Below are positions 28,535 to 54,540 of a stretch of DNA of 64,000 bases, in pieces. The first letter of the stretch is position 1. Each line of letters opens with the position of its first letter. A program made the translations under genes and the position numbers. The stretch is from Brachionus manjavacas (Eukaryota > Rotifera > Eurotatoria > Ploima > Brachionidae): contig JAHQIY010000013.1 in NCBI GenBank assembly GCA_019054805.1, forward strand, positions 1,612,001 to 1,676,000, given 5' to 3'. The notes under the pieces were generated by a model. That model ran no database searches and had not been told where the DNA came from. It saw nothing but the letters and a program-made list of their open reading frames with translations.

Positions 28535-30060
28535 CTTTTTATTTATTTTTTTTTCAGTGAAAACATTGCATTATTCTTAAAAAGTCTTTATTGGATGAAT
28601 CCGTATCAAAGATCTCTAACTACAAATATATCAATATACTCACAACTTAAACAAATGTCAAAATCAAGGTAAATAAATTGTCTAAAATTTAAGTATAATC
28701 AATTTTACGTAAAATCTAGATAAAATTCTGTTTATTAAACGTAGAAAAACATTTGAAAAAATTCAAATAAACATTACTTAAGAATATCTAAAAATTGTCG
28801 GCAATTCACTATTTTTTTTGAATTTTTCCGAAATGGAAACAATAAAATCAATCCTTCCAAAATTATTTTATGTTAGACGATTAAAAAATAACTAATAATT
28901 TTAATTTAATCAAAAAGTTTATCAATTTAGTCCGTTTTCATTATTAAATAACTGAAAGTCTAATTATTATTGTTATTTCGTTATCAAATATTCCATTATT
29001 CGATTTTGAAGGCAAATACGATTTTAAAATCATTTGATTTCAATTTTTTTTAATTTACGCAGAAAATTAAATGATTCAATGATTCAAATTTTGTAGAGAA
29101 TGGTCTCATTCCATCATTTATTTAAATGGTATTTAATAAATATTTAAAAATTCAATTCAATTAAGTCATTTTCTTCTTTGTTTTTTTTCATATTTTCATC
29201 TTCTTAAGGAAAAAAAAGATTAACGAGACAAAAAAGTTTTTCAAAATAAATCAATCGAATGCCATTATTTTATTTTAACGAAAAAGGTTAAATTATATTA
29301 TTTATTTTGGTTGAGTAAATTCAAACAGGCAAACTAGCTCAAACATATCACTTACTCAATTAAATAACCAAAAATTTTGGTTTATTTAATTATTAAATTA
29401 GCAACTTTAACTTTAAATAGCAGTTAATATTAATTATCAGTTAAATTTACTTGATTTCCTTTAAACTAATGTAAGTTATATTTGCAGGATTTACATTAAT
29501 TCATATTGATATGAAAACTGTCTAATATATAAAATTTTAAGAAATAATAGTTTAAACATAAAGAAGTCGTTAAGGAAATTTTCCTATTCTAACTTAGTAA
29601 CCGTTTCAGACAATCAAATATAAAATCTATGTTTAATAAACAGAATTTTATTTAGATTTTTCATAATATTGATTATACTTGAGTAATTATAAATAAAAAT
29701 ATTTCTCTTTTTCTTCATGTGTTTAATTAAAATAATTGCATTTTAGTTAATGAATAATCTGTTTTGTCTCTTGTTTAGAGTTTACCTTTTTTTTTTAAGA
29801 AGAATAAATATTGACGAAATAAATGTTTATATATGTGATAAATGATATTTTAAAGGGAATTAAATAAATTCTTTAAATATTGGATTGTATTTGTTTCAAT
29901 TGAAAGAGATTCATTTTAAAAATAGAAATCAAAAGTAAATTTTTGAAAATTTATATATATCTTTACGTACTAATCTTCTGAATTAATACATATGTATTTA
30001 TAAATATTTAAAGTAATTTTAATAAAATTAATTTTATTTCCTATGTATGAAGAGTATTTT
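28535..30060 (+). repeat. Array, partial unit (last third)
   Basis: Corresponds to 35880-37395 of the full unit (28545 aligns with 35883, 30061 with 37396). It starts at the T-run-CAG block and ends just before the conserved unit start GGTAAATAACTAG. Some small differences (for example AAAAGTC in place of AAAGGTAAGTC near 28580) mark it as the array edge. Confidence 0.75.
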
Positions 30061-30804
30061 GGTAAATAACTAGATAAAAACTTTTGTTTAGAGTTAGATA
30101 GATCGAATATTTATTCTTACTTAACAAAAGATAATTTTATTAATACCAATATACTTATTAATAAGCTCACAATCAATACAAATCATTTGATTAAATTTCT
30201 TAAAACATTAATTATTTGTTTTCTTCTTTCTTTTTACTAAATAAATCAATATTCGTTTTAATCAATATATTAATGACATACTTGAATATAAATTAATATT
30301 GTTATTTTCACAAAATTTTTTCCTATATTACCGACACATTGCAACTATTTCGTTTGCATTCCCTTCACTAAAATTTTTCTTCAAAACACATACTAGTAAG
30401 TAACTAATGTCAAAATCGATTATGTTTTCTAAACTTGTTTCATAAAGCATCGAGAAATATCAATTGTGAATAATTTAAGTTGGTTGTGATTAGATGATTA
30501 AAACTTTAATAGAGCTGATTAATATTTGTCAAGTTAATAACTCGTCGAAAGATCTCCGTTTGTGTTAAATACAAATAAACTGTTTAGCAATAAAAAATTG
30601 TTTTTATTTCCTAAAGTGAAATCTATAAAATATTAGAAAAATAGTAAGAAAAATGCATTTATCCTCCGAAAAATTTTTTTAATTTTTTTTAATCAAGGAA
30701 AATAACTGTAGATCTTTTTCATTTCATTAATAGGGATTTGGGTAAATGAAAGATTTTTTAATAGACTGATGTATTTGCAAAAGTATGATGAAAGATTTTA
30801 GCTT

Positions 30805-30820
30805 CAGAGACGTTTGTCTG
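30805..30820 (+). repeat. CAGAGACGTTTGTCTG motif, first in unit A
   Basis: A 16-base motif with an internal AGAC/GTCT inverted repeat (antisense form CAGACAAACGTCTCTG). It recurs three times per unit, here sense at 30805-30820 and antisense at 31373-31388 (last base A) and 32090-32105. Similarity continues 80-90 bases inward for both antisense copies and outward for the third. It resembles the ends of a MITE, but no target duplication is visible. Confidence 0.5.
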
Positions 30821-31149
30821 TCAAAAGTAAGCTAAAATAGTGCAATTCCAATTAGAAAGTGTGCTTCTTATTGGTTTTTATTAGTTTTTTTAATTATTCG
30901 ATAGACAAGGCAAGTAAGATTTTAAAATCATTCGATTTGAATTTTATTTAATATACGCAGAAAATTAAATGATTCGATGATTTAAATCACTCAAAGAATG
31001 CATCATTATTCATTAATTTACATATATGGTATTTATTAAATATTTTGAAAATTGCTTTATTTTAAGTCATTTTCTTCTCTGTTTTTTTCATTTCTTCATC
31101 TTACTATGGAAAAAAAAGATTAACTATCAAAATCATTTTATTTTAAGCC

Positions 31150-31326
31150 ATGAAATTTTTTTTACCACTAAGTCTTCCCATTCTCCTACTAATTTCGATG
31201 ATGTTGCTCATTGATGAATATATATTCAAATCATCGCCTCTTCTAGATTCTTTCCTGATTTACTTAACGCTTTTAACTGTTTCGATTAAACCATGTTTTT
31301 TGACCTCACATTGTGAAACCAATTAG
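31150..31326 (+). other. Candidate small ORF, 58 codons, array unit A
   Basis: ATG to TAG, 58 residues. Residues 1-20 are hydrophobic after a lysine (MKFFLPLSLPILLL...), a signal-peptide-like or membrane segment. Residues 21-35 are I-D-E-Y-I-F-K-S-S-P-L-L-D-S-F; a second hydrophobic stretch runs to about residue 45; the C-terminus has two cysteines (P-C-F-L-T-S-H-C-E-T-N). The eight-T run after ATGAAA is kept at eight in all six array units and at 61030-61209, although nearby homopolymers vary. No family is recognised and no promoter or polyadenylation evidence can be judged here. Comparison with the diverged copies shows mostly replacement changes, so selection for a protein is not supported. 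Confidence 0.25.
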
Positions 31327-31860
31327 GAGCAGATTTTCTAGTTGGAAATGCAATATTTAATGTTCTTTAAGACAGACAAACGTCTCTAAAACATTTTTAT
31401 TTAAGACAACAATAAATTAGCAAAAAATTTTGTTTTTTTTAATTATTATACAATAAAATTTTGGCAGCTTTATCTTTAAACAGCAGTTAATGTTAATAAT
31501 AAATTTATATTTTTTTCATTACTTTTAAACTAATATTTGTTAAAATTCCAAAATTTACATTAATTCATGCTGATTTTATAAATTGCCAGTTTTCACATAA
31601 GCACGAAATATTATCAAAAAAAATATGTCATATAATGATTGTAAGAGATGGTTTTATTGAACAATTAATCTAGAAAGCAACATCAAAATTTTATTTTACT
31701 TCTGTGATAAAATAATAATTACGTAAGAACGGCTTAATTGAGAAAGTAATTTTAATAGTCTTTTAATATGACACCTTTATGCATAATTTTTACATTGAAT
31801 GAATAATAATTACTGATTATTAATACTCTTGACTAGGATATTAATTCTGGAGTTTTGGTA

Positions 31861-31889
31861 ATAGTGTCGACAATACTGTAGCACACTAT
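31861..31889. repeat. Short inverted repeat landmark (ATAGTGT...ACACTAT)
   Basis: Seven-base perfect stem (ATAGTGT with ACACTAT) around a 15-base centre that includes GTCGAC. It is found once per unit: 34466-34494, 39146-39174, 43551-43579, 48230-48258, 52915-52943, and antisense at 60471-60499. It is absent from the older related modules (for example 22245 and 56080), which diverge right at this point. It is a useful tag for the array lineage; the role is unknown. Confidence 0.6.
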
Positions 31890-32715
31890 GAAAGAAAAAA
31901 ATGTCAAAGATTAATCGTTAGACATCAACACAGAAATCAATAAATTCATAAATAATAAATATTAAATAATGTTCAAATCAAATGATTTTAAAATCTTACT
32001 TGCCTTCTCTATCGAATAATAATAAAAAACTAAGAAAAACCATAAGAAGCACACTTTTTAGTTGGAAATGCATCATTTAAGCTTCCTTACAGACAAACGT
32101 CTCTGAAGCTAAAATCTTTCATCATACTTTTGTAAATACATCAGTCTATTAAAAAATCTTTCATTTACCCAAATCCCTATTAATGAAATAATTTCTCATT
32201 GCTTAATAAAACAAGTTATTAAATATAATCGATTTAGTCATTAGTTCCTTAGTAGTATGTGTTTTGAAGAAAAATTTTAGTGAAGGAAATGCAAACGAAA
32301 TAGTTGCAATGTGTCGTTAAAATAGGAAAAAATCATGTGAAAAAACCAAATTAATTTATATTCATGAATGTACTTAAAATCAAAAACGAAATTTTATTTA
32401 TTTAGTAAAAAGATAGAAGAACACATTAAATTAATGCATTAAGAAATAAACTCAAATGATTTGTATTGATTCTGATATATAATTAAGTAATATTTTTAAA
32501 TAAAATTTGTATTATAAAATTATCTTTGGTTAATTAAAAAAAAAATTCGATCAAATATTTTCTATCTAACTCTAAACTAAAGTTTTTATCTAGTTATTTA
32601 CCAAAATACTCTTCAAATATAGGAAAAAAACTTAATACATAAACTCTAAACTATAAAAAGATAAACTCTAAACAAGAGACAAAACAGCTTGATCATTTAT
32701 TAAAATGCAATTATT

Positions 32716-35700
32716 TGGTAAATAACTAGATAAAAACTTTTGTTTAGAGTTAGATAGATCGAATATTTATTCTTACTTAACAAAAGATAATTTTATTAAT
32801 ACTAATATACTTATTAATAAGCTCACAATCAATATAAATCATTTGATCAAATTTCTTAAAACATTAATTATTTGTTTTCTTCTTTCTTTTTACTAAATAA
32901 ATCAATATTTGTTTTAATCGATATATTAATGATATACTTGAATATAAATTAATATTGTTATATTCACAAAATTTTTTCCTATATTACCGACACATTGCAA
33001 CTATTTCGTTTGCATTCCCTTCACTAAAATTTTTCTTCAAAACACATACTAGTAAGTAACTAATGTCAAAATCGATTATGTTTTCTAAACTTGTTTCATA
33101 AAGCATCGAGAAATATCAATTGTGAATAATTTAAGTTGGTTGTGATTAGATGATTAAAACTTTAATAGAGCTGATTAATATTTGTCAAGTTAATAACTCG
33201 TCGAAAGATTATTTCCTAAAGTGAAATCTATAAAATATTAGAAAAATAGTAAGAAAAATGCATTTATCCTCCGAAAAATTTTTTTAATTTTTTTTTTAAT
33301 CAAGGAAAATAACTGTAGATCTTTTTTATTTCATTAATAGGGATTTGGGTAAATGAAAGATTTTTTAATAGACTGATGTATTTGCAAAAGTATGATGAAA
33401 GATTTTAGCTTCAGAGACGTTTGTCTGTCAAAAGTAAGCTAAAATAGTGCAATTCCAATTAGAAAGTGTGCTTCTTATTGGTTTTTATTAGTTTTTTTTA
33501 ATTATTCGATAGACAAGGCAAGTAAGATTTTAAAATCATTCGATTTGAATTTTATTTAATATACGCAGAAAATTAAATGATTCGATGATTTAAATCACTC
33601 AAAGAATGCATCATTATTCATTAATTTACATAGATGGTATTTATTAAATATTTTGAAAATTGCCTTATTTTAAGTCATTTTCTTCTCTGTTTTTTTCATT
33701 TCTTCATCTTTCTATGGAAAAAAGATTAACTATCAAAATCATTTTATTTTAAGCCATGAAATTTTTTTTACCACTAAGTCTTCCCATTCTCCTACTAATT
33801 TCGATGATGTTGCTCATTGATGAATATATATTCAAATCATCGCCTCTTCTAGATTCTTTCCTGATTTACTTAACGCTTTTAACTGTTTCGATTAAACCAT
33901 GTTTTTTGACCTCACATTGTGAAACCAATTAGGAGCAGATTTTCTAGTTGGAAATGCAATATTTAATGTTCTTTAAGACAGACAAACGTCTCTAAAACAT
34001 TTTTATTTAAGACAACAATAAATTAGCAAAAAATTTTGTTTTTTTTAATTATTATACAATAAAATTTTGGCAGCTTTATCTTTAAACAGCAGTTAATGTT
34101 AATAATAAATTTATATTTTTTTCATTACTTTTAAACTAATATTTGTTAAAATTCCAAAATTTACATTAATTCATGCTGATTTTATAAATTGCCAGTTTTC
34201 ACATAAGCACGAAATATTATCAAAAAAATATGTCATATAATGATTGTAAGAGATGGTTTTATTGAACAATTAATCTAGAAAGCAACATCAAAATTTTATT
34301 TTACTTCTGTGATAAAATAATAATTACGTAAGAACGGCTTAATTGAGAAAGTAATTTTAATAGTCTTTTAATATGACACCTTTATGCATAATTTTTACAT
34401 TGAATGAATAATAATTACTGATTATTAATACTCTTGACTAGGATATTAATTCTGGAGTTTTGGTAATAGTGTCGACAATACTGTAGCACACTATGAAAGA
34501 AAAAAATGTCAAAGATTAATCGTTAGACATCAACACAGAAATCAATAAATTCATAAATAATAAATATTAAATAATGTTCAAATCAAATGATTTTAAAATC
34601 TTACTTGCCTTCTCTATCGAATAATAATAAAAAACTAAGAAAAACCATAAGAAGCACACTTTTTAGTTGGAAATGCATCATTTAAGCTTCCTTACAGACA
34701 AACGTCTCTGAAGCTAAAATCTTTCATCATACTTTTGTAAATACATCAGTCTATTAAAAAATCTTTCATTTACCCAAATCCCTATTAATGAAATAATTTC
34801 TCAATGCTTAATAAAACAAGTTATTAAATATAATCGATTTAGTCATTAGTTCCTTAGTAGTATGTGTTTTGAAGAAAAATTTTAGTGAAGGAAATGCAAA
34901 CGAAATAGTTGCAATGTGTCGTTAAAATAGGAAAAAATCATGTGAAAAAACCAAATTAATTTATATTCATGAATGTACTTAAAATCAAAAACGAAATTTT
35001 ATTTATTTAGTAAAAAGATAGAAGAACACATTAAATTAATGCATTAAGAAATAAACTCAAATGATTTGTATTGATTCTGATATATAATTAAGTAATATTT
35101 TTAAATAAAATTTGTATTATAAAATTATCTTTGGTTAATTAAAAAAAAAATTCGATCAAATATTTTCTATCTAACTCTAAACTAAAGTTTTTATCTAGTT
35201 ATTTACCAAAATACTCTTCAAATATAGGAAAAAAACTTAATACATAAACTCTAAACTATAAAAAGATAAACTCTAAACAAGAGACAAAACAGCTTGATCA
35301 TTTATTAAAATGCAATTATTTTAATTAAACACATGAAACATTAAAAGTTAAATTTTTTCATTAGTTTTAAATTAAAATTAGTTATAATTCCAATTTTTAC
35401 ATTAATTCATTTTGATTCGATGACTGATTTTAAAATTGCTAGATTTTACATTGCCATGATAATTTATCAAATAAATAAGTCTTATAATAATTTTGAAGGA
35501 CTAGTTAGTATTTATGAAAAATTTAACTAGACATCTTGATTAATATTTTATTTAACGTCTGTAATGAAATAAAGATTATGGAACAACGGCTTTAGTCAGG
35601 GAAGAAAAATTATATGAGCTTTCATAATTAAAATGACACTATCATGCAATATATTTACATTGAATAAATTGTTTGATTCAGAAACGGAAAGCCTTTTAAG

Positions 35701-37395
35701 CTGAAAAGTCAACTATTTATTTTTTAATATGATTTAAAAGGATTTTCATTTTTTAATGAACAATTTTTTAAGAATGCGTTATTAATATTCAAATGAACGT
35801 CTTTTTTAAAAAACGAAACAAAGGCTTAAGTGAAGGAAGAAATTTCTAGAAGTATTAGAAATTATTTGAGAATGTTATTAATTTTTTTTTCAGTGAAAAC
35901 ATTGCATTATTCTTAAAGGTAAGTCTTTATTGGATGAATCCGTATCAAAGATCTCTAACTACAAATATATCAATATACTCACAACTTAAACAAATGTCAA
36001 AATCAAGGTAAATAAATTGTCTAAAATTTAAGTATAATCAATTTTACGTAAAATCTAGATAAAATTCTGTTTATTAAACGTAGAAAAACATTTGAAAAAT
36101 TCAAATAAACATTACTTAAGAATATCTAAAAATTGTCGGCAATTCACTATTTTTTTTGAATTTTTCCCAAATGGAAACAATAAAATCAATCCTTCCAAAA
36201 TTATTTTATATTAGACGATTAAAAAATAACTAATAATTTTAACTTAATCAAAAAGTTTATCAATTAAGTCCGTTTTCATTATTAAATAACTGAAAGTATA
36301 ATTATTATTGTTATTTCGTTATCAAATATTCCATTATTCGATTTTGAAGGCAAAAACGATTTTAAAATCATTTGATTACAATTTAATTTAATTTAGGCAG
36401 AAAATTAAATGATTCAATGATTCAAATTTTATAAAGAATGGTTTTATTCAATCATTAATTTAAATGGTATTTATTAAATATTAAAAAATTCAATTCAATT
36501 AAGTCATTTTCTTCTTTTTTTTTTCATATTTTCATCTTTATAAGGAAAAAAAAGATTAACAAGACAAAAAAGTTTTTCAAAATAAATCAATCGAATGCCA
36601 TTATTTTATTTTAACGCAAAAAGGTTAAATTTTATTTTATATTTTGGTTGAGTAAATTCAAGCAGGCAAACTAGCCCAAACATATCACTGACTCAATTAA
36701 TTATCGAAAAATTTGGTTTATTTAATTATTAAATTAGCAACTTTAACTTTAAATAGCAGTTAATATTAATTATCAATTAAATTTACTTGATTTCCTTTAA
36801 ACTAATGTAAGTTATATTTGCAGGATTTACATTAATTCATATTGATATGAAAACTGTCTAATATATAAAATTTTAAGAAATAATAGTTTAAACATAAAGA
36901 AGTCGTTAAGGAAATTTTCCTATTCTAACTTAGTAACCGTTTCAGACGATCAAATATTAAATCTATGTTTAATAAACAGAATTTTATTTAGATTTTACAT
37001 AATATTGATTATACTTGAGTAATTATAAATAAAATTATTTCTCTTTTTCTTCATGTGTTTAATTAAAATAATTGCATTTTAGTTAATGATCAAGCTGTTT
37101 TGTCATTGTTTAGAGTTTATTTTTTTTTTTAAAAAGAATAAATATTGCTGAAAAAAAATGTTTATATATGTGATAAATGATATTTTAAAGGGAATTAAAT
37201 AAATTCTTTAAATATTGGATTGTATTTGTTTCAATTGAAAGAGATTCATTTTAAAAATAGAAATCAAAAAGTAAATTTTTGAAAATTTATATATATCTTT
37301 ACGTACTAATCTTCTGAATTAATACATATGTATTTATAAATATTTAAAGTAATTTTAATAAAATTAATTTTATTTCCTATGTATGAAGAGTATTT
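32716..37395 (+). repeat. Array unit B (4680 bp, full)
   Basis: Reference unit. Order: GGTAAATAACTAG start; TTCGTTTGCATTCCC block (33006-33030); GACGAGTTATT block antisense of 18110 (33116-33210); CAGAGACG motif (about 33415); small-ORF module; antisense motif (about 33980); hairpin landmark; antisense motif (about 34695); antisense forms of the first blocks (34860-35260); AACAGCTTGATCA block (35288); ACGGCTTTAGTCAGGG block (35586); T-run-CAG/GTAAGT block (35880-35925); arm-type module antisense (36080-36480); and a closing block to 37395. The first half is therefore an internal inverted repeat. Very similar to C-F by eye. Confidence 0.88.
33756..33932 (+). other. Candidate small ORF, array unit B
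   Basis: Same 58-codon frame, ATG to TAG, as at 31150-31326, with an intact eight-T run. Unproven as a gene. Confidence 0.22.
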
Positions 37396-40300
37396 TGGTA
37401 AATAACTAGATAAAAACTTTTGTTTAGAGTTAGATAGATCGAATATTTATTCTTACTTAACAAAAGATAATTTTATTAATACTAATATACTTATTAATAA
37501 GCTCACAATCAATATAAATCATTTGATCAAATTTCTTAAAACATTAATTATTTGTTTTCTTCTTTCTTTTTACTAAATAAATCAATATTTGTTTTAATCG
37601 ATATATTAATGATATACTTGAATATAAATTAATATTGTTATATTCACAAAATTTTTTCCTATATTACCGACACATTGCAACTATTTCGTTTGCATTCCCT
37701 TCACTAAAATTTTTCTTCAAAACACATACTAGTAAGTAACTAATGTCAAAATCGATTATGTTTTCTAAACTTGTTTCATAAAGCATCGAGAAATATCAAT
37801 TGTGAATAATTTAAGTTGGTTGTGATTAGATGATTAAAACTTTAATAGAGCTGATTAATATTTGTCAAGTTAATAACTCGTCGAAAGATTATTTCCTAAA
37901 GTGAAATCTATAAAATATTAGAAAAATAGTAAGAAAAATGCATTTATCCTCCGAAAAATTTTTTTAATTTTTTTTTAATCAAGGAAAATAACTGTAGATC
38001 TTTTTTATTTCATTAATAGGGATTTGGGTAAATGAAAGATTTTTTAATAGACTGATGTATTTGCAAAAGTATGATGAAAGATTTTAGCTTCAGAGACGTT
38101 TGTCTGTCAAAAGTAAGCTAAAATAGTGCAATTCCAATTAGAAAGTGTGCTTCTTATTGGTTTTTATTAGTTTTTTTTTAATTATTCGATAGACAAGGCA
38201 AGTAAGATTTTAAAATCATTCGATTTGAATTTTATTTAATATACGCAGAAAATTAAATGATTCGATGATTTAAATCACTCAAAGAATGCATCATTATTCA
38301 TTAATTTACATAGATGGTATTTATTAAATATTTTGAAAATTGCCTTATTTTAAGTCATTTTCTTCTCTGTTTTTTTCATTTCTTCATCTTTCTATGGAAA
38401 AAAAGATTAACTATCAAAATCATTTTATTTTAAGCCATGAAATTTTTTTTACCACTAAGTCTTCCCATTCTCCTACTAATTTCGATGATGTTGCTCATTG
38501 ATGAATATATATTCAAATCATCGCCTCTTCTAGATTCTTTCCTGATTTACTTAACGCTTTTAACTGTTTCGATTAAACCATGTTTTTTGACCTCACATTG
38601 TGAAACCAATTAGGAGCAGATTTTCTAGTTGGAAATGCAATATTTAATGTTCTTTAAGACAGACAAACGTCTCTAAAACATTTTTATTTAAGACAACAAT
38701 AAATTAGCAAAAAATTTTGTTTTTTTTAATTATTATACAATAAAATTTTGGCAGCTTTATCTTTAAACAGCAGTTAATGTTAATAATAAATTTATATTTT
38801 TTCATTACTTTTAAACTAATATTTGTTAAAATTCCAAAATTTACATTAATTCATGCTGATTTTATAAATTGCCAGTTTTCACATAAGCACGAAATATTAT
38901 CAAAAAAATATGTCATATAATGATTGTAAGAGATGGTTTTATTGAACAATTAATCTAGAAAGCAACATCAAAATTTTATTTTACTTCTGTGATAAAATAA
39001 TAATTACGTAAGAACGGCTTAATTGAGAAAGTAATTTTAATAGTCTTTTAATATGACACCTTTATGCATAATTTTTACATTGAATGAATAATAATTACTG
39101 ATTATTAATACTCTTGACTAGGAAATTAATTCTGGAGTTTTGGTAATAGTGTCGACAATACTGTAGCACACTATGAAAGAAAAATGTCAAAGATTAATCG
39201 TTAGACATCAACACAGAAATCAATAAATTCATAAATAATAAATATTAAATAATGTTCAAATCAAATGATTTTAAAATCTTACTTGCCTTCTCTATCGAAT
39301 AATAATAAAAAACTAAGAAAAACCATAAGAAGCACACTTTTTAGTTGGAAATGCATTATTTAAGCTTCCTTACAGACAAACGTCTCTGAAGCTAAAATCT
39401 TTCATCATACTTTTGTAAATACATCAGTCTATTAAAAAATCTTTGATTCAACCAAATCCCTATTAATGAAATAATTTCTCAATGCTTAATAAAACAAGTT
39501 ATTAAATATAATCGATTTAGTCATTAGTTCCTTAGTAGTATGTGTTTTGAAGAAAAATTTTAGTGAAGGGAATGCAAACGAAATAGTTGCAATGTGTCGT
39601 TAAAATAGGAAAAAATCATGTGAAAAAACCAAATTAATTTATATTCATGAATGTACTTAAAATCAAAAACGAAATTTTATTTATTTAGTAAAAAGATAGA
39701 AGAACACATTAAATTAATGCATTAAGAAATAAACTCAAATGATTTGTATTGATTCTGATATATAATTAAGTAATATTTTTAAATAAAATTTGTATTATAA
39801 AATTATCTTTGGTTAATTAAAAAAAAAATTCGATCAAATATTTTCTATCTAACTCTAAACTAAAGTTTTTATCTAGTTATTTACCAAAATACTCTTCAAA
39901 TATAGGAAAAAAACTTAATTCATAAACTCTAAACTCTAAAAAGATAAACTCTAAACAAGAGACAAAACAGCTTGATCATTTATTAAAATGCAATTATTTT
40001 AATTAAACACATGAAACATTAAAAGTTAAATTTTTTCATTAGTTTTAAATTAAAATTAGTTATAATTCCAAGATTTACTTTAATTCATTTTGATTCGATG
40101 ACTGATTTTAAAATTGCTAGATTTTACATTGCCATGATAATTTATCAAATAAATAAGTCTTATAATAATTTTGAAGGACTAGTTAGTATTTATGAAAAAT
40201 TTAACTAGACATCTTGATTAATATTTTATTTAACGTCTGTAATGAAATAAAGATAATGGAACAACGGCTTTAGTCAGGGAAGAAAAATTATATGAGCTTT

Positions 40301-41749: not shown

Positions 41750-44700
41750 GGTAAATAACTAGATAAAAACTTTTGTTTAGAGTTAGATAGATCGAATATT
41801 TATTCTTACTTAACAAAAGATAATTTTATTAATACCAATATACTTATTAATAAGCTCACAATCAATACAAATCATTTGATTAAATTTCTTAAAACATTAA
41901 TTATTTGTTTTCTTCTTTCTTTTTACTAAATAAATCAATATTCGTTTTAATCAATATATTAATGACATACTTGAATATAAATTAATATTGTTATTTTCAC
42001 AAAATTTTTTCCTATATTACCGACACATTGCAACTATTTCGTTTGCATTCCCTTCACTAAAATTTTTCTTCAAAACACATACTAGTAAGTAACTAATGTC
42101 AAAATCGATTATGTTTTCTAAACTTGTTTCATAAAGCATCGAGAAATATCAATTGTGAATAATTTAAGTTGGTTGTGATTAGATGATTAAAACTTTAATA
42201 GAGCTGATTAATATTTGTCAAGTTAATAACTCGTCGAAAGATCTCCGTTTGTGTTAAATACAAATAAACTGTTTAGCAATAAAAAATTGTTTTTATTTCC
42301 TAAAGTGAAATCTATAAAATATTAGAAAAATAGTAAGAAAAATGCATTTATCCTCCAAAAAATTTTTTTAATTTTTTTTAATCAAGGAAAATAACTGTAG
42401 ATCTTTTTCATTTCATTAATAGGGATTTGGGTAAATGAAAGTTTTTTTAATAGACTGATGTATTTACAAAAGTATGATGAAAGATTTTAGCTTCAGAGAC
42501 GTTTGTCTGTCAAAAGTAAGCTAAAATAGTGCAATTCCAATTAGAAAGTGTGCTTCTTATTGGTTTTTATTAGTTTTTTTTTAATTATTCGATAGACAAG
42601 GCAAGTAAGATTTTAAAATCATTCGATTTGAATTTTATTTAATATACGCAGAAAATTAAATGATTCGATGATTTAAATCACTCAAAGAATGCATCATTAT
42701 TCATTAATTTACATAGATGGTATTTATTAAATATTTTGAAAATTGCCTTATTTTAAGTCATTTTCTTCTCTGTTTTTTTCATTTCTTCATCTTACTATGG
42801 AAAAAAAAGATTAACTATCAAAATCATTTTATTTTAAGCCATGAAATTTTTTTTACCACTAAGTCTTCCCATTCTCCTACTAATTTCGATGATGTTGCTC
42901 ATTGATGAATATATATTCAAATCATCGCCTCTTCTAGATTCTTTCCTGATTTACTTAACGCTTTTAACTGTTTCGATTAAACCATGTTTTTTGACCTCAC
43001 ATTGTGAAACCAATTAGGAGCAGATTTTCTAGTTGGAAATGCAATATTTAATGTTCTTTAAGACAGACAAACGTCTCTAAAACATTTTTATTTAAGACAA
43101 CAATAAATTAGCAAAAAATTTTGTTTTTTTTAATTATTATACAATAAAATTTTGGCAGCTTTATCTTTAAACAGCAGTTAATGTTAATAATAAATTTATA
43201 TTTTTTTCATTACTTTTAAACTAATATTTGTTAAAATTCCAAAATTTACATTAATTCATGCTGATTTTATAAATTGCCAGTTTTCACATAAGCACGAAAT
43301 ATTATCAAAAAAATATGTCATATAATGATTGTAAGAGATGGTTTTATTGAACAATTAATCTAGAAAGCAACATCAAAATTTTATTTTACTTCTGTGATAA
43401 AATAATAATTACGTAAGAACGGCTTAATTGAGAAAGTAATTTTAATAGTCTTTTAATATGACACCTTTATGCATAATTTTTACATTGAATGAATAATAAT
43501 TACTGATTATTAATACTCTTGACTAGGAAATTAATTCTGGAGTTTTGGTAATAGTGTCGACAATACTGTAGCACACTATGAAAGAAAAAATGTCAAAGAT
43601 TAATCGTTAGACAACAACACAGAAATCAATAAATTCATAAATAATAAATATTAAATAATGTTCAAATCAAATGATTTTAAAATCTTACTTGCCTTCTCTA
43701 TCGAATAATAATAAAAAACTAAGAAAAACCATAAGAAGCACACTTTTTAGTTGGAAATGCATTATTTAAGCTTCCTTACAGACAAACGTCTCTGAAGCTA
43801 AAATCTTTCATCATACTTTTGTAAATACATCAGTCTATTAAAAAATCTTTCATTTACCCAAATCCCTATTAATGAAATAATTTCTCAATGCTTAATAAAA
43901 CAAGTTATTAAATATAATCGATTTAGTCATTAGTTCCTTAGTAGTATGTGTTTTGAAGAAAAATTTTAGTGAAGGAAATGCAAACGAAATAGTTGCAATG
44001 TGTCGTTAAAATAGGAAAAAATCATGTGAAAAAACCAAATTAATTTATATTCTTGAATGTACTTAAAATCAAAAACGAAATTTTATTTATTTAGTAAAAA
44101 GATAGAAGAACACATTAAATTAATGCATTAAGAAATAAACTCAAATGATTTGTATTGATTCTGATATATAATTAAGTAATATTTTTAAATAAAATTTGTA
44201 TTATAAAATTATCTTTGGTTAATTAAAAAAAAAATTCGATCAAATATTTTCTATCTAACTCTAAACTAAAGTTTTTATCTAGTTATTTACCAAAATACTC
44301 TTCAAATATAGGAAAAAAACTTAATACATAAACTCTAAACTCTAAATAGATAAACTCTAAACAAGAGACAAAACAGCTTGATCATTTATTAAAATGCAAT
44401 TATTTTAATTAAACACATGAAACATTAAAAGTTAAATTTTTTCATTAGTTTTAAATTAAAATTAGTTATAATTCCAAGATTTACATTAATTCATTTTGAT
44501 TCGATGACTGATTTTAAAATTGCTAGATTTTACATTGCCATGATAATTTATCAAATAAATAAGTCTTATAATAATTTTGAAGGACTAGTTAGTATTTATG
44601 AAAAATTTAACTAGACATCTTGATTAATATTTTATTTAACGTCTGTAATGAAATAAAGATAATGGAACAACGGCTTTAGTCAGGGAAGAAAAATTATATG

Positions 44701-46480
44701 AGCTTTCATAATTAAAATGACACTATCATGCAATATATTTACATTGAATAAATTGTTTGATTCAGAAACGGAAAGCCTTTTAAGCTGGAAAGTCAATTAT
44801 TTATTTTTTAACATGATTTAAAAGGATTTTCATTTTTTTATGAACTATTTTTTAAGAATGCGTTATTAATATTCAAATGAACGTCTTTTTTTAAAAAAAC
44901 GAAACAAAGGCTTAAGTGAAGGAAGAAATTTTTAGAAGTATTAGAAATTATTTGAGAATGTAATTAATTTTTTTTTCAGTGAAAACATTGCATTATTCTT
45001 AAAGGTAAGTCTTTATTGGATGAATCCGTATCAAAGATCTCTAACTACAAATATATCAATATACTCACAACTTAAACAAATGTCAAAATCAAGGTAAATA
45101 AATTGTCTAAAATTTAAGTATAATCAATTTTACGTAAAATCTAAATAAAATTCTGTTTATTAAACGTAGAAAAACATTTGAAAAAATTCAAATAAACATT
45201 ACTTAAGAATATCTAAAAATTGCCGGCAATTCACTATTTTTTTTGAATTTTTCCGAAATGGAAACAATAAAATCAATCCTTCCAAAATTATTTTATATTA
45301 GACGATTAAAAAATAACTAATAATTTTAACTTAATCAAAAAGTTTATCAATTAAGTCCGTTTTCATTATTAAATAACTGAAAGTCTAATTATTATTGTTA
45401 TTTCGTTATCAAATATTCCATTATTCGATTTTGAAGGCAAAAACGATTTTAAAATCATTTGATTACAATTTAATTTAATTTAGGCAGAAAATTAAATGAT
45501 TCAATGATTCAAATTTTATAAAGAATGGTTTTATTCAATCATTAATTTAAATGGTATTTATTAAATATTAAAAAATTCAATTCAATTAAGTCATTTTCTT
45601 CTTTTTTTTTTCATATTTTCATCTTTATAAGGAAAAAAGATTAACAAGACAAAAAAGTTTTTCAAAATAAATCAATCGAATGCCATTATTTTATTTTAAC
45701 GCAAAAAGGTTAAATTTTATTTTATATTTTGGTTGAGTAAATTCAAGCAGGCAAACTAGCCCAAACATATCACTGACTCAATAAATTATCGAAAATTTTG
45801 GTTTATTTAATTATTAAATTAGCAACTTTAACTTTAAATAGCAGTTAATATTAATTATCAGTTAAATTTACTTGATTTCCTTTAAACTAATGTAAGTTAT
45901 ATTTGCAGGATTTACATTAATTCATATTGATATGAAAACTGTCTAATATATAAAATTTTAAGAAATAATAGTTTAAACATAAAGAAGTCGTTAAGGAAAT
46001 TTTCCTATTCTAAATTAGTAACCGTTTCAGACGATCAAATATTAAATCTATGTTTAATAAACAGAATTTTATTTAGATTTTACATAATATTGATTATACT
46101 TGAGTAATTATAAATAAAATTATTTCTCTTTTTCTTCATGTGTTTAATTAAAATAATTGCATTTTAGTTAATGATCAAGCTGTTTTGTCATTGTTTAGAG
46201 TTTATTTTTTTTTTTAAAAAGAATAAATATTGCTGAAAAAAAATGTTTATATATGTGATAAATGATATTTTAAAGGGAATTAAATAAATTCTTTAAATAT
46301 TGGATTGTATTTGTTTCAATTGAAAGAGATTCATTTTAAAAATAGAAATCAAAAGTAAATTTTTGAAAATTTATATATATCTTTACGTACTAATCTTCTG
46401 AATTAATACATATGTATTTATAAATATTTAAAGTAATTTTAATAAAATTAATTTTATTTCCTATGTATGAAGAGTATTTT
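41750..46480 (+). repeat. Array unit D (4731 bp, full, long subtype)
   Basis: Equals unit B plus the extra segment of about 51 bases (about 42241-42292), the exact size difference of 51. This places D with A for this marker. Yet its second half (for example GGAAAGTCAATTATTT near 44785, ACATGATTTAAAAGG) goes with E, F and the inverted copy at 63.1 kb, so D is a recombinant. Confidence 0.87.
42841..43017 (+). other. Candidate small ORF, array unit D
   Basis: Same 58-codon frame, ATG to TAG. Unproven as a gene. Confidence 0.22.
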
Positions 46481-49400
46481 GGTAAATAACTAGATAAAAA
46501 CTTTTGTTTAGAGTTAGATAGATCGAATATTTATTCTTACTTAACAAAAGATAATTTTATTAATACCAATATACTTATTAATAAGCTCACAATCAATACA
46601 AATCATTTGATTAAATTTCTTAAAACATTAATTATTTGTTTTCTTCTTTCTTTTTACTAAATAAATCAATATTCGTTTTAATCAATATATTAATGACATA
46701 CTTGAATATAAATTAATATTGTTATTTTCACAAAATTTTTTCCTATATTACCGACACATTGCAACTATTTCGTTTGCATTCCCTTCACTAAAATTTTTCT
46801 TCAAAACACATACTAGTAAGTAACTAATGTCAAAATCGATTATGTTTACTAAACTTGTTTCATAAAGCATCGAGAAATATCAATTGTGAATAATTTAAGT
46901 TGGTTGTGATTAGATGATTAAAACTTTAATAGAGCTGATTAATATTTGTCAAGTTAATAACTCGTCGAAAGATTATTTCCTAAAGTGAAATCTATAAAAT
47001 ATTAGAAAAATAGTAAGAAAAATGCATTTATCCTCCGAAAAATTTTTTTAATTTTTTTTAATCAAGGAAAATAACTGTAGATCTTTTTTATTTCATTAAT
47101 AGGGATTTGGGTAAATGAAAGATTTTTTAATAGACTGATGTATTTGCAAAAGTATGATGAAAGATTTTAGCTTCAGAGACGTTTGTCTGTCAAAATTAAG
47201 CTAAAATAGTGCAATTCCAATTAGAAAGTGTGCTTCTTATTGGTTTTTATTAGTTTTTTTTTAATTATTCGATAGACAAGGCAAGTAAGATTTTAAAATC
47301 ATTCGATTTGAATATTATTTAATATACGCAGAAAATTAAATGATTCGATGATTTAAATCACTCAAAGAATGCATCATTATTCATTAATTTACATAGATGG
47401 TATTTATTAAATATTTTGAAAATTGCTTTATTTTAAGTCATTTTCTTCTCTGTTTTTTTCATTTCTTCATCTTACTATAGAAAAAAAGATTAACTATCAA
47501 AATCATTTTATTTTAAGCCATGAAATTTTTTTTACCACTAAGTCTTCCCATTCTCCTACTAATTTCGATGATGTTGCTCATTGATGAATATATATTCAAA
47601 TCATCGCCTCGTCTAGATTCTTTCCTGATTTACTTAACGCTTTTAACTGTTTCGATTAAACCATGTTTTTTGACTTCACATTGTGAAACCAATTAGGAGC
47701 AGATTTTCTAGTTGGAAATGCAATATTTAATGTTCTTTAAGACAGACAAACGTCTCTAAAACATTTTTATTTAAGACAACAATAAATTAGCAAAAAATTT
47801 TGTTTTTTTTAATTATTATACAATAAAATTTTGGCAGCTTTATCTTTAAACAGCAGTTAATGTTAATAATAAATTTATATTTTTTTCATTACTTTTAAAC
47901 TAATATTTGTTAAAACTCCAAAATTTACATTAATTCATGCTGATTTTATAAATTGCCAGTTTTCACATAAGCACGAAATATTATCAAAAAAATATGTCAT
48001 ATAATGATTGTAAGAGATGGTTTTATTGAACAATTAATCTAGAAAGCAACATCAAAATTTTATTTTACTTCTGTGATAAAATAATAATTACGTAAGAACG
48101 GCTTAATTGAGAAAGTAATTTTAATAGTCTTTTAATATGACACCTTTATGCATAATTTTTACATTGAATGAATAATAATTACTGATTATTAATACTCTTG
48201 ACTAGGAAATTAATTCTGGAGTTTTGGTAATAGTGTCGACAATACTGTAGCACACTATGAAAGAAAAAAATGTCAAAGATTAATCGTTAGACATCAACAT
48301 AGAAATCAATAAATTCATAAATAATAAATATTAAATAATGTTCAAATCAAATGATTTTAAAATCTTACTTGCCTTCTCTATCGAATAATAATAAAAAACT
48401 AAGAAAAACCATAAGAAGCACACTTTTTAGTTGGAAATGCATTATTTAAGCTTCCTTACAGACAAACGTCTCTGAAGCTAAAATCTTTCATCATACTTTT
48501 GTAAATACATCAGTCTATTAAAAAATCTTTCATTTACCCAAATCCCTATTAATGAAATAATTTCTCAATGCTTAATAAAACAAGTTATTAAATATAATCG
48601 ATTTAGTCATTAGTTCCTTAGTAGTATGTGTTTTGAAGAAAAATTTTAGTGAAGGGAATGCAAACGAAATAGTTGCAATGTGTCGTTAAAATAGGAAAAA
48701 ATCATGTGAAAAAACCAAATTAATTTATATTCATGAATGTACTTAAAATCAAAAACGAAATTTTATTTATTTAGTAAAAAGATAGAAGAACACATTAAAT
48801 TAATGCATTAAGAAATAAACTCAAATGATTTGTATTGATTCTGATATATAATTAAGTAATATTTTTAAATAAAATTTGTATTATAAAATTATCTTTGGTT
48901 AATTAAAAAAAAAATTCGATCAAATATTTTCTATCTAACTCTAAACTAAAGTTTTTATCTAGTTATTTACCAAAATACTCTACAAATATAGGAAAAAAAC
49001 TTAATACATAAACTCTAAACTCTAAAAAGATAAACTCTAAACAAGAGACAAAACAGCTTGATCATTTATTAAAATGCAATTATTTTAATTAAACACATGA
49101 AACATTAAAAGTTAAATTTTTTCATTAGTTTTAAATTAAAATTAGTTATAATTCCAAGATTTACATTAATTCATTTTGATTCGATGACTGATTTTAAAAT
49201 TGCTAGATTTTACATTGCCATGATAATTTATCAAATAAATAAGTCTTATAATAATTTTGAAGGACTAGTTAGTATTTATGAAAAATTTAACTAGACATCT
49301 TGATTAATATTTTATTTAACGTCTGTAATGAAATAAAGATAATGGAACAACGGCTTTAGTCAGGGAAGAAAAATTATATGAGCTTTCATAATTAAAATGA

Positions 49401-51163
49401 CACTATCATGCAATATATTTACATTGAATAAATTGTTTGATTCAGAAACGGAAAGCCTTTTAAGCTGGAAAGTCAATTATTTATTTTTTAACATGATTTA
49501 AAAGGATTTTCATTTTTTTATGAACTATTTTTTAAGAATGCGTTATTAATATTCAAATGAACGTCTTTTTTTAAAAAAACGAAACAAAGGCTTAAGTGAA
49601 GGAAGAAATTTTTAGAAGTATTAGAAATTATTTGAGAATGTAATTAATTTTTTTTTCAGTGAAAACATTGCATTATTCTTAAAGGTAAGTCTTTATTGGA
49701 TGAATCCGTATCAAAGATCTCTAACTACAAATATATCAATATACTCACAACTTAAACAAATGTCAAAATCAAGGTAAATAAATTGTCTAAAATTTAAGTA
49801 TAATCAATTTTACGTAAAATCTAAATAAAATTCTGTTTATTAAACGTAGAAAAACATTTGAAAAAATTCAAATAAACATTACTTAAGAATATCTAAAAAT
49901 TGTCGGCAATTCACTATTTTTTTTGAATTTTTCCGAAATGGAAACAATAAAATCAATCCTTCCAAAATTATTTTATATTAGACGATTAAAAAATAACTAA
50001 TAATTTTAACTTAATCAAAAAGTTTATCAATTAAGTCCGTTTTCATTATTAAATAACTGAAAGTCTAATTATTATTGTTATTTCGTTATCAAAAATTCCA
50101 TTATTCGATTTTGAAGGCAAAAACGATTTTAAAATCATTTGATTACAATTTAATTTAATTTAGGCAGAAAATTAAATGATTAAATGATTCAAATTTTATA
50201 AAGAATGGTTTTATTCAATCATTAATTTAAATGGTATTTATTAAATATTAAAAAATTCAATTCAATTAAGTCATTTTCTTCTTTTTTTTTTCATATTTTC
50301 ATCTTTATAAGGAAAAAAAAGATTAACAAGACAAAAAAGTTTTTCAGAATAAATCAATCGAATGCCATTATTTTATTTTAACGCAAAAAGGTTAAATTTT
50401 ATTTTATATTTTGGTTGAGTAAATTCAAGCCGGCAAACTAGCCCAAACATATCACTGACTCAATAAATTATCGAAAATTTTGGTTTATTTAATTATTAAA
50501 TTAGCAACTTTAACTTTAAATAGCAGTTAATATTAATTATCAGTTAAATTTACTTGATTTCCTTTAAACTAATGTAAGTTATATTTGCAGGATTTACATT
50601 AATTCATATTGATATGAAAACTGTCTAATATATAAAATTTTAAGAAATAATAGTTTAAACATAAAGAAGTCGTTAAGGAAATTTTCCTATTCTAACTTAG
50701 TAACCGTTTCAGACGATCAAATATTAAATCTATGTTTAATAAACAGAATTTTATTTAGATTTTACATAATATTGATTATACTTGAGTAATTATAAATAAA
50801 ATTATTTCTCTTTTTCTTCATGTGTTTAATTAAAATAATTGCATTTTAGTTAATGATCTAGCTGTTTTGTCATTGTTTAGAGTTTATTTTTTTTTTTAAA
50901 AAGAATAAATATTGCTGAAAAAAAAATGTTTATATATGTGATAAATGATATTTTAAAGGGAATTAAATAAATTCTTTAAATATTGGATTGTATTTGTTTC
51001 AATTGAAAGAGATTCATTTTAAAAATAGAAATCAAAAGTAAATTTTTGAAAATTTATATATATCTTTACGTACTAATCTTCTGAATTAATACATATGTAT
51101 TTATAAATATTTAAAGTAATTTTAATAAAATTAATTTTATTTCCTATGTATGAAGAGTATTTT
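46481..51163 (+). repeat. Array unit E (4683 bp, full)
   Basis: Short subtype without the 51-base segment; differs from B only by scattered substitutions and homopolymer changes. Small private changes include ATTAAGC for AGTAAGC near 47195 and CTACAAATATAGG near 48980, the latter shared with F. Confidence 0.87.
47520..47696 (+). other. Candidate small ORF, array unit E
   Basis: Same 58-codon frame with Arg in place of Leu at about residue 31 (CGTCTAGAT versus CTTCTAGAT), as in F. Unproven as a gene. Confidence 0.22.
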
Positions 51164-54100
51164 GGTAAATAACTAGATAAAAACTTTTGTTTAGAGTTAG
51201 ATAGATCGAATATTTATTCTTACTTAACAAAAGATAATTTTATTAATACTAATATACTTATTAATAAGCTCACAATCAATACAAATCATTTGATCAAATT
51301 TCTTAAAACATTAATTATTTGTTTTCTTCTTTCTTTTTACTAAATAAATCAATATTTGTTTTAATCAATATATTAATGATATACTTGAATATAAATTAAT
51401 ATTGTTATATTCACAAAATTTTTTCCTATATTACCGACACATTGCAACTATTTCGTTTGCATTCCCTTCACTAAAATTTTTCTTCAAAACACATACTAGT
51501 AAGTAACTAATGTCAAAATCGATTATGTTTACTAAACTTGTTTCATAAAGCATCGAGAAATATCAATTGTGAATAATTTAAGTTGGTTGTGATTAGATGA
51601 TTAAAACTTTAATAGAGCTGATTAATATTTGTCAAGTTAATAACTCGTCGAAAGATTATTTCCTAAAGTGAAATCTATAAAATATTAGAAAAATAGTAAG
51701 AAAAATGCATTTATCCTCCGAAAAATTTTTTTAATTTTTTTTTAATCAAGGAAAATAACTGTAGATCTTTTTTATTTCATTAATAGGGATTTGGGTAAAT
51801 GAAAGATTTTTTAATAGACTGATGTATTTGCAAAAGTATGATGAAAGATTTTAGCTTCAGAGACGTTTGTCTGTCAAAAGTAAGCTAAAATAGTGCAATT
51901 CCAATTAGAAAGTGTGCTTCTTATTGGTTTTTATTAGTTTTTTTTTATTATTCGATTGAGAAGGCAAGTTAGATTTTAAAATCATTCGATTTGAATATTA
52001 TTTAATATACGCAGAAAATTAAATGATTCGATGATTTAAATCACTCAAAGAATGCATCATTATTCATTAATTTACATAGATGGTATTTATTAAATATTTT
52101 GAAAATTGCTTTATTTTAAGTCATTTTCTTCTCTGTTTTTTTCATTTCTTCATCTTACTATAGAAAAAAAAGATTAACTATCAAAATCATTTTATTTTAA
52201 GCCATGAAATTTTTTTTACCACTAAGTCTTCCCATTCTCCTACTAATTTCGATGATGTTGCTCATTGATGAATATATATTCAAATCATCGCCTCGTCTAG
52301 ATTCTTTCCTGATTTACTTAACGCTTTTAACTGTTTCGATTAAACCATGTTTTTTGACTTCACATTGTGAAACCAATTAGGAGCAGATTTTCTAGTTGGA
52401 AATGCAATATTTAATGTTCTTTAAGACAGACAAACGTCTCTAAAACATTTTTATTTAAGACAACAATAAATTAGCAAAAAATTTTGTTTTTTTTAATTAT
52501 TATACAATAAAATTTTGGCAGCTTTATCTTTAAACAGCAGTTAATGTTAATAATAAATTTATATTTTTTTCATTACTTTTAAACTAATATTTGTTAAAAT
52601 TCCAAAATTTACATTAATTCATGCTGATTTTATAAATTGCCAGTTTTCACATAAGCACGAAATATTATCAAAAAAAATATGTCATATAATGATTGTAAGA
52701 GATGGTTTTATTGAACAATTAATCTAGAAAGCAACATCAAAATTTTATTTTACTTCTGTGATAAAATAATAATTACGTAAGAACGGCTTAATTGAGAAAG
52801 TAATTTTAATAGTCTTTTAATATGACACCTTTATGCATAATTTTTACATTGAATGAATAATAATTACTGATTATTAATACTCTTGACTAGGAAATTAATT
52901 CTGGAGTTTTGGTAATAGTGTCGACAATACTGTAGCACACTATGAAAGAAAAAAATGTCAAAGATTAATCGTTAGACAACAACACAGAAATCAATAAATT
53001 CATAAATAATAAATATTAAATAATGTTCAAATCAAATGATTTTAAAATCTTACTTGCCTTCTCTATCGAATAATAATAAAAAACTAAGAAAAACCATAAG
53101 AAGCACACTTTTTAGTTGGAAATGCATTATTTAAGCTTCCTTACAGACAAACGTCTCTGAAGCTAAAATCTTTCATCATACTTTTGTAAATACATCAGTC
53201 TATTAAAAAATCTTTCATTTACCCAAATCCCTATTAATGAAATAATTTCTCAATGCTTAATAAAACAAGTTATTAAATATAATCGGTTTAGTCATTAGTT
53301 CCTTAGTAGTATGTGTTTTGAAGAAAAATTTTAGTGAAGGGAATGCAAACGAAATAGTTGCAGTGTGTCGTTAAAATAGGAAAAAATCATGTGAAAATAA
53401 CAATATTAATTTATATTCATGAATGTACTTAAAATCAAAAACGAAATTTTATTTATTTAGTAAAAGATAGAAGAACACATTAAATTAATGCATTAAGAAA
53501 TAAACTCAAATGATTTGTATTGATTCTGATATATAATTAAGTAATATTTTTAAATAAAATTTGTATTATAAAATTATCTTTGGTTAATTAAAAAAAAAAT
53601 TCGATCAAATATTTTCTATCTAACTCTAAACAAAAGTTTTTATCTAGTTATTTACCAAAATACTCTACAAATATAGGAAAAAAACTTAATACATAAACTC
53701 TAAACTCTAAAAAGATAAACTCTAAACAAGAGACAAAACAGCTTGATCATTTATTAAAATGCAATTATTTTAATTAAACACATAAAACATTAAAAGTTAA
53801 ATTTTTTCATTAGTTTTAAATTAAAATTAGTTATAATTCCAAGATTTACATTAATTCATTTTGATTCGATGACTGATTTTAAAATTGCTAGATTTTACAT
53901 TGCCATGATAATTTATCAAATAAATAAGTCTTATAATAATTTTGAAGGACTAGTTAGTATTTATGAAAAATTTAACTAGACATCTTGATTAATATTTTAT
54001 TTAACGTCTGTAATGAAATAAAGATAATGGAACAACGGCTTTAGTCAGGGAAGAAAAATTATATGAGCTTTCATAATTAAAATGACACTATCATGCAATA

Positions 54101-54540
54101 TATTTACATTGAATAAATTGTTTGATTCAGAAACGGAAAGCCTTTTAAGCTGGAAAGTCAATTATTTATTTTTTAACATGATTTAAAAGGATTTTCATTT
54201 TTTTATGAACTATTTTTTAAGAATGCGTTATTAATATTCAAATGAACGTCTTTTTTTAAAAAAACGAAACAAAGGCTTAAGTGAAGGAAGAAATTTTTAG
54301 AAGTATTAGAAATTATTTGAGAATGTAATTAATTTTTTTTTCAGTGAAAACATTGCATTATTCTTAAAGGTAAGTCTTTATTGGATGAATCCGTATCAAA
54401 GATCTCTAACTACAAATATATCAATATACTCACAACTTAAACAAATGTCAAAATCAAGGTAAATAAATTTTCTAAAATTTAAGTATAATCAATTTTACGT
54501 AAAATCTAAATAAAATTCTGTTTATTAAACATAGATTTTT
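51164..54540 (+). repeat. Array unit F (3377 bp, right-truncated)
   Basis: Short subtype. It follows the unit order up to the TTCTGTTTATTAAAC string, where other units continue GTAGAAAAAC and this one continues ATAGATTTTTTATTTG, as in the older copies near 1470. The array ends here. Confidence 0.83.
52204..52380 (+). other. Candidate small ORF, array unit F
   Basis: Same 58-codon frame, ATG to TAG, sharing the Arg change with unit E. Unproven as a gene. Confidence 0.22.

What the first reader, a model, noticed from the sequence alone, without database searches (positions are those of the whole stretch)
28535..54540. A 26-kb head-to-tail macrosatellite with a 4.68-kb unit
Unit starts (GGTAAATAACTAG) lie at 30061, 32716, 37396, 41750, 46481 and 51164, giving spacings of 2655, 4680, 4354, 4731 and 4683. 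Units are nearly identical outside a few indels, so the array is young and homogenised. Each unit is itself built of inverted sub-blocks, an unusual design for a satellite.
Basis: seen in the sequence. Interest (0 to 1): 0.75.

Follow-up and report, generated by a model that had tools for sequence, protein, structure and literature searches.

The report
Single-locus palindromic repeat block
The 26-kb tandem array is real, but it is only the youngest head-to-tail stretch of a roughly 100-kb AT-rich repeat block, found at one place in an apparently rotifer genome, that has been copying pieces of itself in both orientations.

Summary
In detail: window 28541-54535 is a head-to-tail array of a ~4.68-kb unit (three complete units, one with a 327-bp deletion, one cut short, a partial unit at each end), with 0.45-1.10% substitutions between units U1-U6. 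The name "macrosatellite" fits only in part. Every base of the array also aligns to places outside it (median 15 alignments), the unit's sequence accounts for 74% of the other 76.8 kb of the block, and inverted copies are as frequent as direct ones (932 vs 877 pairs). The block (C13:1577-1680 kb, about 22% GC) contains kilobase palindromes, including a 6.4-kb module in three alternating orientations. It is private to one locus: a 21-base conserved word has 34 of 34 genome-wide matches within C13:1.530-1.755 Mb. 47-bp-based satellite arrays lie on both sides. The host is very probably a monogonont rotifer. Best reading: non-coding, heterochromatin-like DNA that grows in place by inverted and head-to-tail duplication. 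A nest of transposons is rejected as the main cause: only a Helitron-containing passenger is found elsewhere. A localized centromere is possible but unproven; the short-dyad test was mixed.

The parts
28541..54535 (+). Head-to-tail array: partial unit 28541-30060; U1 30061-32716 (stops at unit position 2605); U2 32717-37396; U3 37397-41749 (lacks unit positions 4174-4500); U4 41750-46480; U5 46481-51163; U6 51164-54535 (stops at position 3370)
46447..49005 (.). Fold-back part of the unit (shown for U5): arms 46447-46878 / 48560-49005 (455 bp, 82%) and 47088-47325 / 48328-48560 (238 bp, 92%), inner ~1 kb
   Evidence: same layout listed for U1-U4 and U6
49752..50829 (.). Second inverted pair of the unit (shown for U5): 49752-49850 / 50729-50829, 103 bp, 81%
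17647..18632 (.). Stand-alone fold-back of the same arms (384 and 368 bp, 81%), inner 234 bp; inverted twin at 24631-25616
15690..27552 (.). Palindrome: arms 15690-19839 / 23424-27552, 4.15 kb, 96.8%, spacer 3.58 kb
   Evidence: C13:1627690-1631839 | 1635424-1639552
1..2417 (-). End of copy 2 of a 6.4-kb module (strand sign arbitrary); copy 1 lies left of the window (C13:1601365-1607728, inverted to copy 2, 98.65%, 329-bp spacer)
4938..11312 (+). Copy 3 of the 6.4-kb module, inverted to copy 2 (98.15%, 2.5-kb spacer), so the three copies alternate in orientation
2416..3457 (.). Helitron-containing passenger segment; further full-length copies in the window at 22258-23296 and 56088-57136. Its first ~700 bp are the only part of the block found dispersed on other contigs
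59775..62289 (.). Another copy of the unit's fold-back part, outside the array

Best explanation
This is a single-locus, apparently non-coding, AT-rich repeat block of about 103 kb (C13:1577-1680 kb) with outlying pieces from 1.525 to 1.755 Mb, set among satellite arrays and transposon debris on a 3.21-Mb contig of a probable monogonont rotifer. It grows in cis. Inverted (fold-back or template-switch) duplications create palindromes, later breaks shuffle and truncate them, and unequal exchange between neighbouring direct copies makes head-to-tail runs, of which the 26-kb array is the youngest seen. Shown: the anatomy, the confinement to one locus, the balance of direct and inverted copies, the spread of ages and the passenger Helitron. 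Inferred: the exact recombination route, and that the block behaves as constitutive heterochromatin without a coding role.
For: Locus confinement: 34 of 34 matches of a 21-base word (2 mismatches allowed, whole genome) lie in C13:1.530-1.755 Mb (the same 34 recounted in my fetched stretch), and 40 of 40 matches of a 642-bp arm lie in C13:1.5266-1.7552 Mb, 34 of 34 candidates scored. Shared material: all of the array's sequence aligns outside it within 1576-1696 kb, median 15 alignments, and the unit covers 74.3% of the other 76,806 bp of the block. Both orientations: 877 direct and 932 inverted piece pairs of 300 bp or more. Spread of ages: 60% of directly and 66% of inversely aligned bases lie at 85-95% identity (computed), while 37 inverted pairs of 800 bp or more reach 96% or higher, up to 99.5%, and array units differ by 0.45-1.10%. 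Passenger: a Helitron-containing segment has 22 of 35 matches inside the locus and 13 elsewhere, so foreign DNA was carried along by segmental duplication. In the window no closed ORF of 120 aa or more, no tRNA and no Rfam match at gathering score; the longest stop-to-stop frame from C13:1512001 to 1675549 is 124 codons.
Against: Fold-back microhomology at palindrome centres was not shown; the 10-11 base inverted words in the spacers had no control. Heterochromatin is inferred from composition and repeat content only, and genes split by many introns were not searched for. The arms hold a 21-base invariant run longer than any of 2000 column shuffles (maximum 19), which could mean selection on a binding site rather than neutral drift, although the mean over 20 columns was within the shuffle range (both 1.0). 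Raw reads were not available.
Confidence: 0.62

Rival explanations
1. It is the core or flank of a localized (peri)centromere of this chromosome: an AT-rich inverted-repeat core between satellite arrays, acting without the usual CenH3.
For: One private block near the middle (satellites and block at 1.50-1.86 of 3.21 Mb) of the contig, with 47-bp-based satellite arrays on both sides and no open frame above 124 codons from 1512 to 1675 kb. Multi-kilobase macro-dyads are described in putative (peri)centromeres of Tribolium (PMC13081366, passages). Short-dyad coverage in the block (1.66 and 1.73 times Markov) is above two of three non-satellite flanks (0.70, 1.21).
Against: The same dyad coverage is below the third flank (2.13) and the array itself has only 1.15. 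The contig is not shown to be a whole chromosome: both ends are tandem arrays, and the left-end satellite gave no match even to itself, probably because the search skips words that are very common, so a more abundant satellite may be the centromeric one. Gnathifera are reported to have lost CenH3, and Adineta is thought likely holocentric (PMC12460157, passages). No equivalent block on other contigs was looked for directly.
Confidence: 0.17
2. A nest of non-autonomous transposons with long terminal inverted repeats that insert into one another.
For: Long inverted arms, nested layout and stand-alone fold-backs.
Against: No match outside one 230-kb locus. The expected empty site (fold-back 17647-18632) looks like a deletion derivative rather than a clean pre-insertion site (my reading). 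No constant target-site duplication was apparent in the part of the collinear-gap list that I saw (output cut, no dedicated test). A passenger co-duplicates.
Confidence: 0.08
3. A functional macrosatellite or chromatin-boundary locus like DXZ4, where repeated protein-binding sites organise the chromosome.
For: Single-locus kilobase units, a 21-base invariant run in 11 distinct arms and 34 copies of that word.
Against: The run is only slightly longer than the shuffle maximum (19), and the 20-column mean was not beyond the shuffles. No binding, expression or population data.
Confidence: 0.07
4. Assembly artefact: collapsed or chimeric joins in a repeat-rich region.
For: Repeats of 4-6 kb at 97-99.5% identity are hard to assemble; no reads were available.
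Against: Units carry private substitutions and indels. The conclusion of a locus rich in inverted copies does not hang on the exact order.
Confidence: 0.06

Closest known systems
Tribolium macro-dyad satellite arrays (T. madens TmSat1/TmSat2; PMC13081366, passages seen)
   Same: Inverted subarrays of kilobases forming palindromes, plus smaller inverted repeats within the unit (about 600-bp palindrome-like monomer there, 1-2.6-kb fold-backs here).
   Different: There, two short-monomer satellites over megabases on all chromosomes; here, one private ~100-kb mosaic with kilobase units and no short-monomer array in the core. The paper says such macro-dyads were documented only in Tribolium.
Human macrosatellites (RS447 4.7 kb, D4Z4: PMC3018141, passages seen; DXZ4: search listing only)
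   Same: Units of several kb, head to tail, specific to one or two loci.
   Different: Only ~5.5 units; the unit's sequence is spread in both orientations around the array.
Copy-number-variable satellite elements of Brachionus asplanchnoidis (PMC8447722, passages seen)
   Same: Gene-poor satellite blocks of hundreds of kb on rotifer contigs; the flanking arrays here have raised GC (32-37%), near their 37% GC peak.
   Different: Monomers there are 154 and 143 bp; here 47-bp multiples (188, 233, ~280). The passages seen describe no AT-rich palindromic core. Copy-number variation untested.
Fold-back inverted duplications (PMC3907307, passages seen)
   Same: Inverted duplicates around a short single-copy spacer, as in the two large palindromes with 329- and 238-bp spacers.
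   Different: The human cases are large chromosome-end rearrangements with spacers of 766 bp or more. The junction microhomology test was not repeated here.

Membership tests
Macrosatellite | Unit of several kb repeated adjacently in the same orientation | tested here: met
Macrosatellite | Specific to one or two loci | tested here: met
   but the same sequence also lies outside the array in both orientations
Macrosatellite | Copy number varies between individuals | not testable with these tools
   one assembly, no reads
TIR transposon nest | Copies dispersed to unrelated loci | tested here: not met
   34 of 34 and 40 of 40 matches in one locus
TIR transposon nest | Target-site duplications and fixed ends | tested here: inconclusive
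   one search scanned junction overlaps only within about -3 to +26 bases and its output was cut; no constant length in the rows seen; no dedicated duplication test was run
Localized centromere | Occupied by kinetochore proteins | not testable with these tools
   needs chromatin data
Localized centromere | One comparable region per chromosome | not tested
Localized centromere | Raised short dyad symmetry (proposed feature, not obligatory) | tested here: inconclusive
   four Markov copies each: core 1.66 and 1.73, array 1.15; non-satellite flanks 2.13, 1.21, 0.70; satellites 0.00 and 0.39
Localized centromere | CenH3 gene in the genome | tested here: inconclusive
   60 histone-fold matches; I read translations from 4 of the 10 fetched loci and saw H3, an H3.3-like exon and an H3 variant without a longer loop 1; the rest were not read
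Macro-dyad satellite | Kilobase-scale inverted subarrays | tested here: met
Macro-dyad satellite | Megabase extent on all chromosomes | tested here: not met
   single locus
B. asplanchnoidis CNV satellite element | Made mainly of rotiSat1/rotiSat2 monomers (154 and 143 bp) | tested here: not met
   by period only: tandem runs in the window have periods up to 27 bp and fewer than 3 copies; flanks are 188/233/~280 bp. rotiSat sequences were not compared

The most novel reading that the evidence does not exclude
The block is (part of) a localized centromere in a lineage reported to have lost CenH3: each rotifer chromosome would carry its own private, AT-rich, palindrome-built core that renews itself by in-place inverted duplication, dyad architecture replacing sequence and CenH3 as the mark.
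Probability: 0.12. Interest if true: 0.85.

Novelty: new variant of a known kind. Interest (0 to 1): 0.45.

Why it matters
Multi-kilobase dyad symmetry in satellites is described as documented only in Tribolium beetles (PMC13081366, passages). A private, palindrome-built block in a rotifer would show that the architecture can arise independently and be assembled from one locus's own sequence. It also offers a concrete, FISH- and Hi-C-testable candidate region in Gnathifera, where CenH3 is reported lost and Adineta is thought likely holocentric (PMC12460157, passages), so how monogonont chromosomes attach to the spindle is a question one could test here.

Tried and rejected
Transposon nest: the inverted arms first looked like terminal inverted repeats with one element inserted in another. 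Rejected as the main cause because no match is found outside one locus, the supposed empty site looks like a deletion derivative, and no constant target duplication was apparent in the rows seen. Three-unit higher-order repeat: U1 and U4 are the closest pair (0.45%) and share a 51-bp insertion, which favours it, but U2-U5 (0.92%) and U3-U6 (1.07%) should then also be closest and are not; U2+U3 share 12 sites, U5+U6 6, U1+U4 alone only 1; mostly rejected. Short dyad symmetry as a centromere sign: mixed. DNA folding of one fold-back gave a long hairpin but has no shuffle control at that length and is not used. Satellites at the contig ends as telomeric evidence: uninformative. Whole-block segmentation (788 segments, 35 families, arbitrary thresholds) was used only for orientation and for one part. 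Species by COX1 failed: the only match looks bacterial. Species by HSP70 did not complete. Nothing describing this locus appeared among the papers listed (top rows only, titles and abstract starts).
Full report
Setting. The window is C13:1612001-1676000 of a 114.17-Mb, 61-contig assembly; C13 is 3.21 Mb long. The H3 histones read are animal-like. An H3 variant from C16 is 78% identical to a Brachionus calyciflorus protein and 86-87% to an unnamed environmental one, against 69-71% to two other H3 proteins aligned with it, with several residues shared only by the first three (one search listed 120 of 6409 matches). B. calyciflorus is a monogonont rotifer (Gnathifera). The host is therefore very probably a monogonont rotifer. 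This is inference from one gene; the assembly carries no name.

Observation. The unit starts lie where stated, two of the six being one base off. U5 aligns in full with two other units at 98.3-98.9% and with shortened or partial ones; U3 lacks unit positions 4174-4500. Substitutions alone among U1-U6 are 0.45-1.10%. Chance is excluded: 0 of 100 shuffles reach the motif count, and three Markov copies of the window give no self-match of 100 bp or more against 2561 observed.

What surrounds it. The array does not stand alone. Repeats cover 98.9% of the window and 98.4% of the 35 kb to its left. All bases of the array align to places outside it, median 15 alignments, and the unit accounts for 74.3% of the remaining 76,806 bp of the C13:1577-1680 kb block. 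Of 13 uncovered stretches longer than 400 bp, 9 overlap copies of the Helitron-containing segment. Within 1576-1696 kb there are 877 direct and 932 inverted pairs of pieces of 300 bp or more. No stop-to-stop frame between 1512001 and 1675549 exceeds 124 codons.

Anatomy. Dyad symmetry is layered. Inside the unit are fold-backs (455 and 238 bp arms over ~2.56 kb; 103 bp over 1.08 kb). Above them are kilobase palindromes: a 6.4-kb module in three alternating orientations at C13:1601365-1607728, 1608058-1614417 and 1616938-1623312 (98.65% and 98.15%); 4.15-kb arms at window 15690-19839 and 23424-27552 (96.8%); and, outside the window, ~6-kb arms at 1707550-1713507 and 1714566-1720528 (99.5%). The array is the head-to-tail phase of the same material.

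Confinement. A 642-bp arm finds 40 matches, all in C13:1.5266-1.7552 Mb, with all 34 candidates scored. A 21-base conserved word with two mismatches allowed has 34 matches in the genome, all in C13:1.530-1.755 Mb; the reversed control pattern has 3, and a recount in my fetched stretch gives the same 34. The exception is the Helitron-containing segment: 22 of 35 matches in the locus and 13 elsewhere, on C13 at 2.77 Mb and on C2, C4, C5, C8, C10 and C20; the dispersed part is its first ~700 bp, and one copy overlaps an ORF with a Helitron_like_N domain. Foreign DNA that landed in the block was thus duplicated with it. That is what segmental duplication predicts and transposition of the block's own elements does not.

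Flanks. To the left lies a 233/~280-bp satellite (about 1532.6-1577.1 kb, with a smaller piece at ~1519-1524 kb). To the right lies a 188-bp satellite (1763.7 to at least 1776 kb, where my fetched stretch ends) and a related stretch in the opposite orientation at 1828-1861 kb. The periods are close to multiples of 47 bp, and TRF also reports a period of 47 on the right; a bare 47-bp minisatellite of the same family sits on C9 at 2332.2-2332.7 kb. A 15-base word of this family has 137 matches in the genome; the 100 listed are 1 on C3, 10 on C9 and 89 on C13, and 120 in all lie in my stretch, so 6 were not located. To the right of the block lie a LINE, a Helitron ORF, a MULE/ZSWIM-type ORF and a SET-domain exon.

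Mechanism. The simplest account is growth in cis. An inverted duplication by fold-back or template switching makes a palindrome; palindromes break and are shuffled; direct neighbours expand by unequal exchange. The ages are spread accordingly: 60% of directly and 66% of inversely aligned bases at 85-95%, 37 inverted pairs at 96-99.5%, array units at 98.9-99.55% by substitutions. The route itself is inferred: microhomology at the centres was not properly tested. The arms contain a 21-base run invariant in 11 distinct copies, longer than the maximum of 2000 column shuffles (19), but the best 20-column mean was not beyond the shuffles. This is at most suggestive of constraint.

Centromere question. 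Position, satellites on both sides and macro-dyads recall putative pericentromeres of Tribolium (PMC13081366, passages). Against it: contig ends that are themselves tandem arrays, a left-end satellite that the search could not find even at its own place, probably because very common words are skipped, and the reported loss of CenH3 in Gnathifera with likely holocentric Adineta (PMC12460157, passages). Short dyads are mixed: block 1.66-1.73 times Markov, array 1.15, flanks 2.13, 1.21 and 0.70. I give a localized-centromere reading 0.17 and keep it as the boldest case; rereading the dyad test as mixed rather than negative did not move these odds.

Verdict. A real, locus-private, palindrome-built repeat block, ordinary in looking like non-coding heterochromatic DNA, unusual in architecture and confinement. 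New variant of a known kind; interest 0.45.

Noticed in passing
L036 (C16:794960-795286, second copy C16:790199-790525): A divergent histone H3 variant shared with Brachionus calyciflorus (78%) and an environmental protein (86-87%); no longer loop 1 as recalled for CenH3.
   Followed up: partly
L039 (C21:120555-121901): The only COX1 match in the assembly reads 661 aa by the bacterial code with two neighbouring ORFs on the same strand; C21 may be a bacterial contig (symbiont or contaminant).
   Followed up: partly
L021-L023 (C13:1705488-1705943 and 1707550-1720528): A SET-domain exon lies beside a young palindrome (6-kb arms, 99.5%) whose two arms each carry the same protein-like ORF (1710722-1711165 and 1716919-1717353), possibly a Set1-type gene piece (recalled resemblance).
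   Followed up: partly
L019-L020 (C13:1681267-1681974 and 1683863-1686613): Two near-identical LINE ORF starts (endonuclease plus reverse transcriptase in the longer one); closest relatives are unnamed jgi/ena proteins at 40-49% identity.
   Followed up: partly
L046 (C9:2332.2-2332.7 kb): A short 47-bp minisatellite of the same family as the C13 flanking satellites, possibly close to their ancestral form.
   Followed up: partly
L044 and L045 (C13:1-600 and C13:3206878-3213355): Both contig ends are tandem arrays: left, a ~340-bp unit that the search could not match, probably because its words are very common; right, a ~123-bp unit array of 6.5 kb.
   Followed up: partly
L021 (C13:1699293-1704680) and L023/L026 (C13:1723159-1724120, 1747966-1748412): Further tandem arrays: one of ~5.4 kb with periods that are multiples of ~134 bp, and an 80-bp array present twice.
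   Followed up: no
window 63550-64000 (C13:1675550-1676041): A 164-codon stop-to-stop frame in the non-repeated stretch at the right edge of the window; no Pfam match for its part inside the window.
   Followed up: partly
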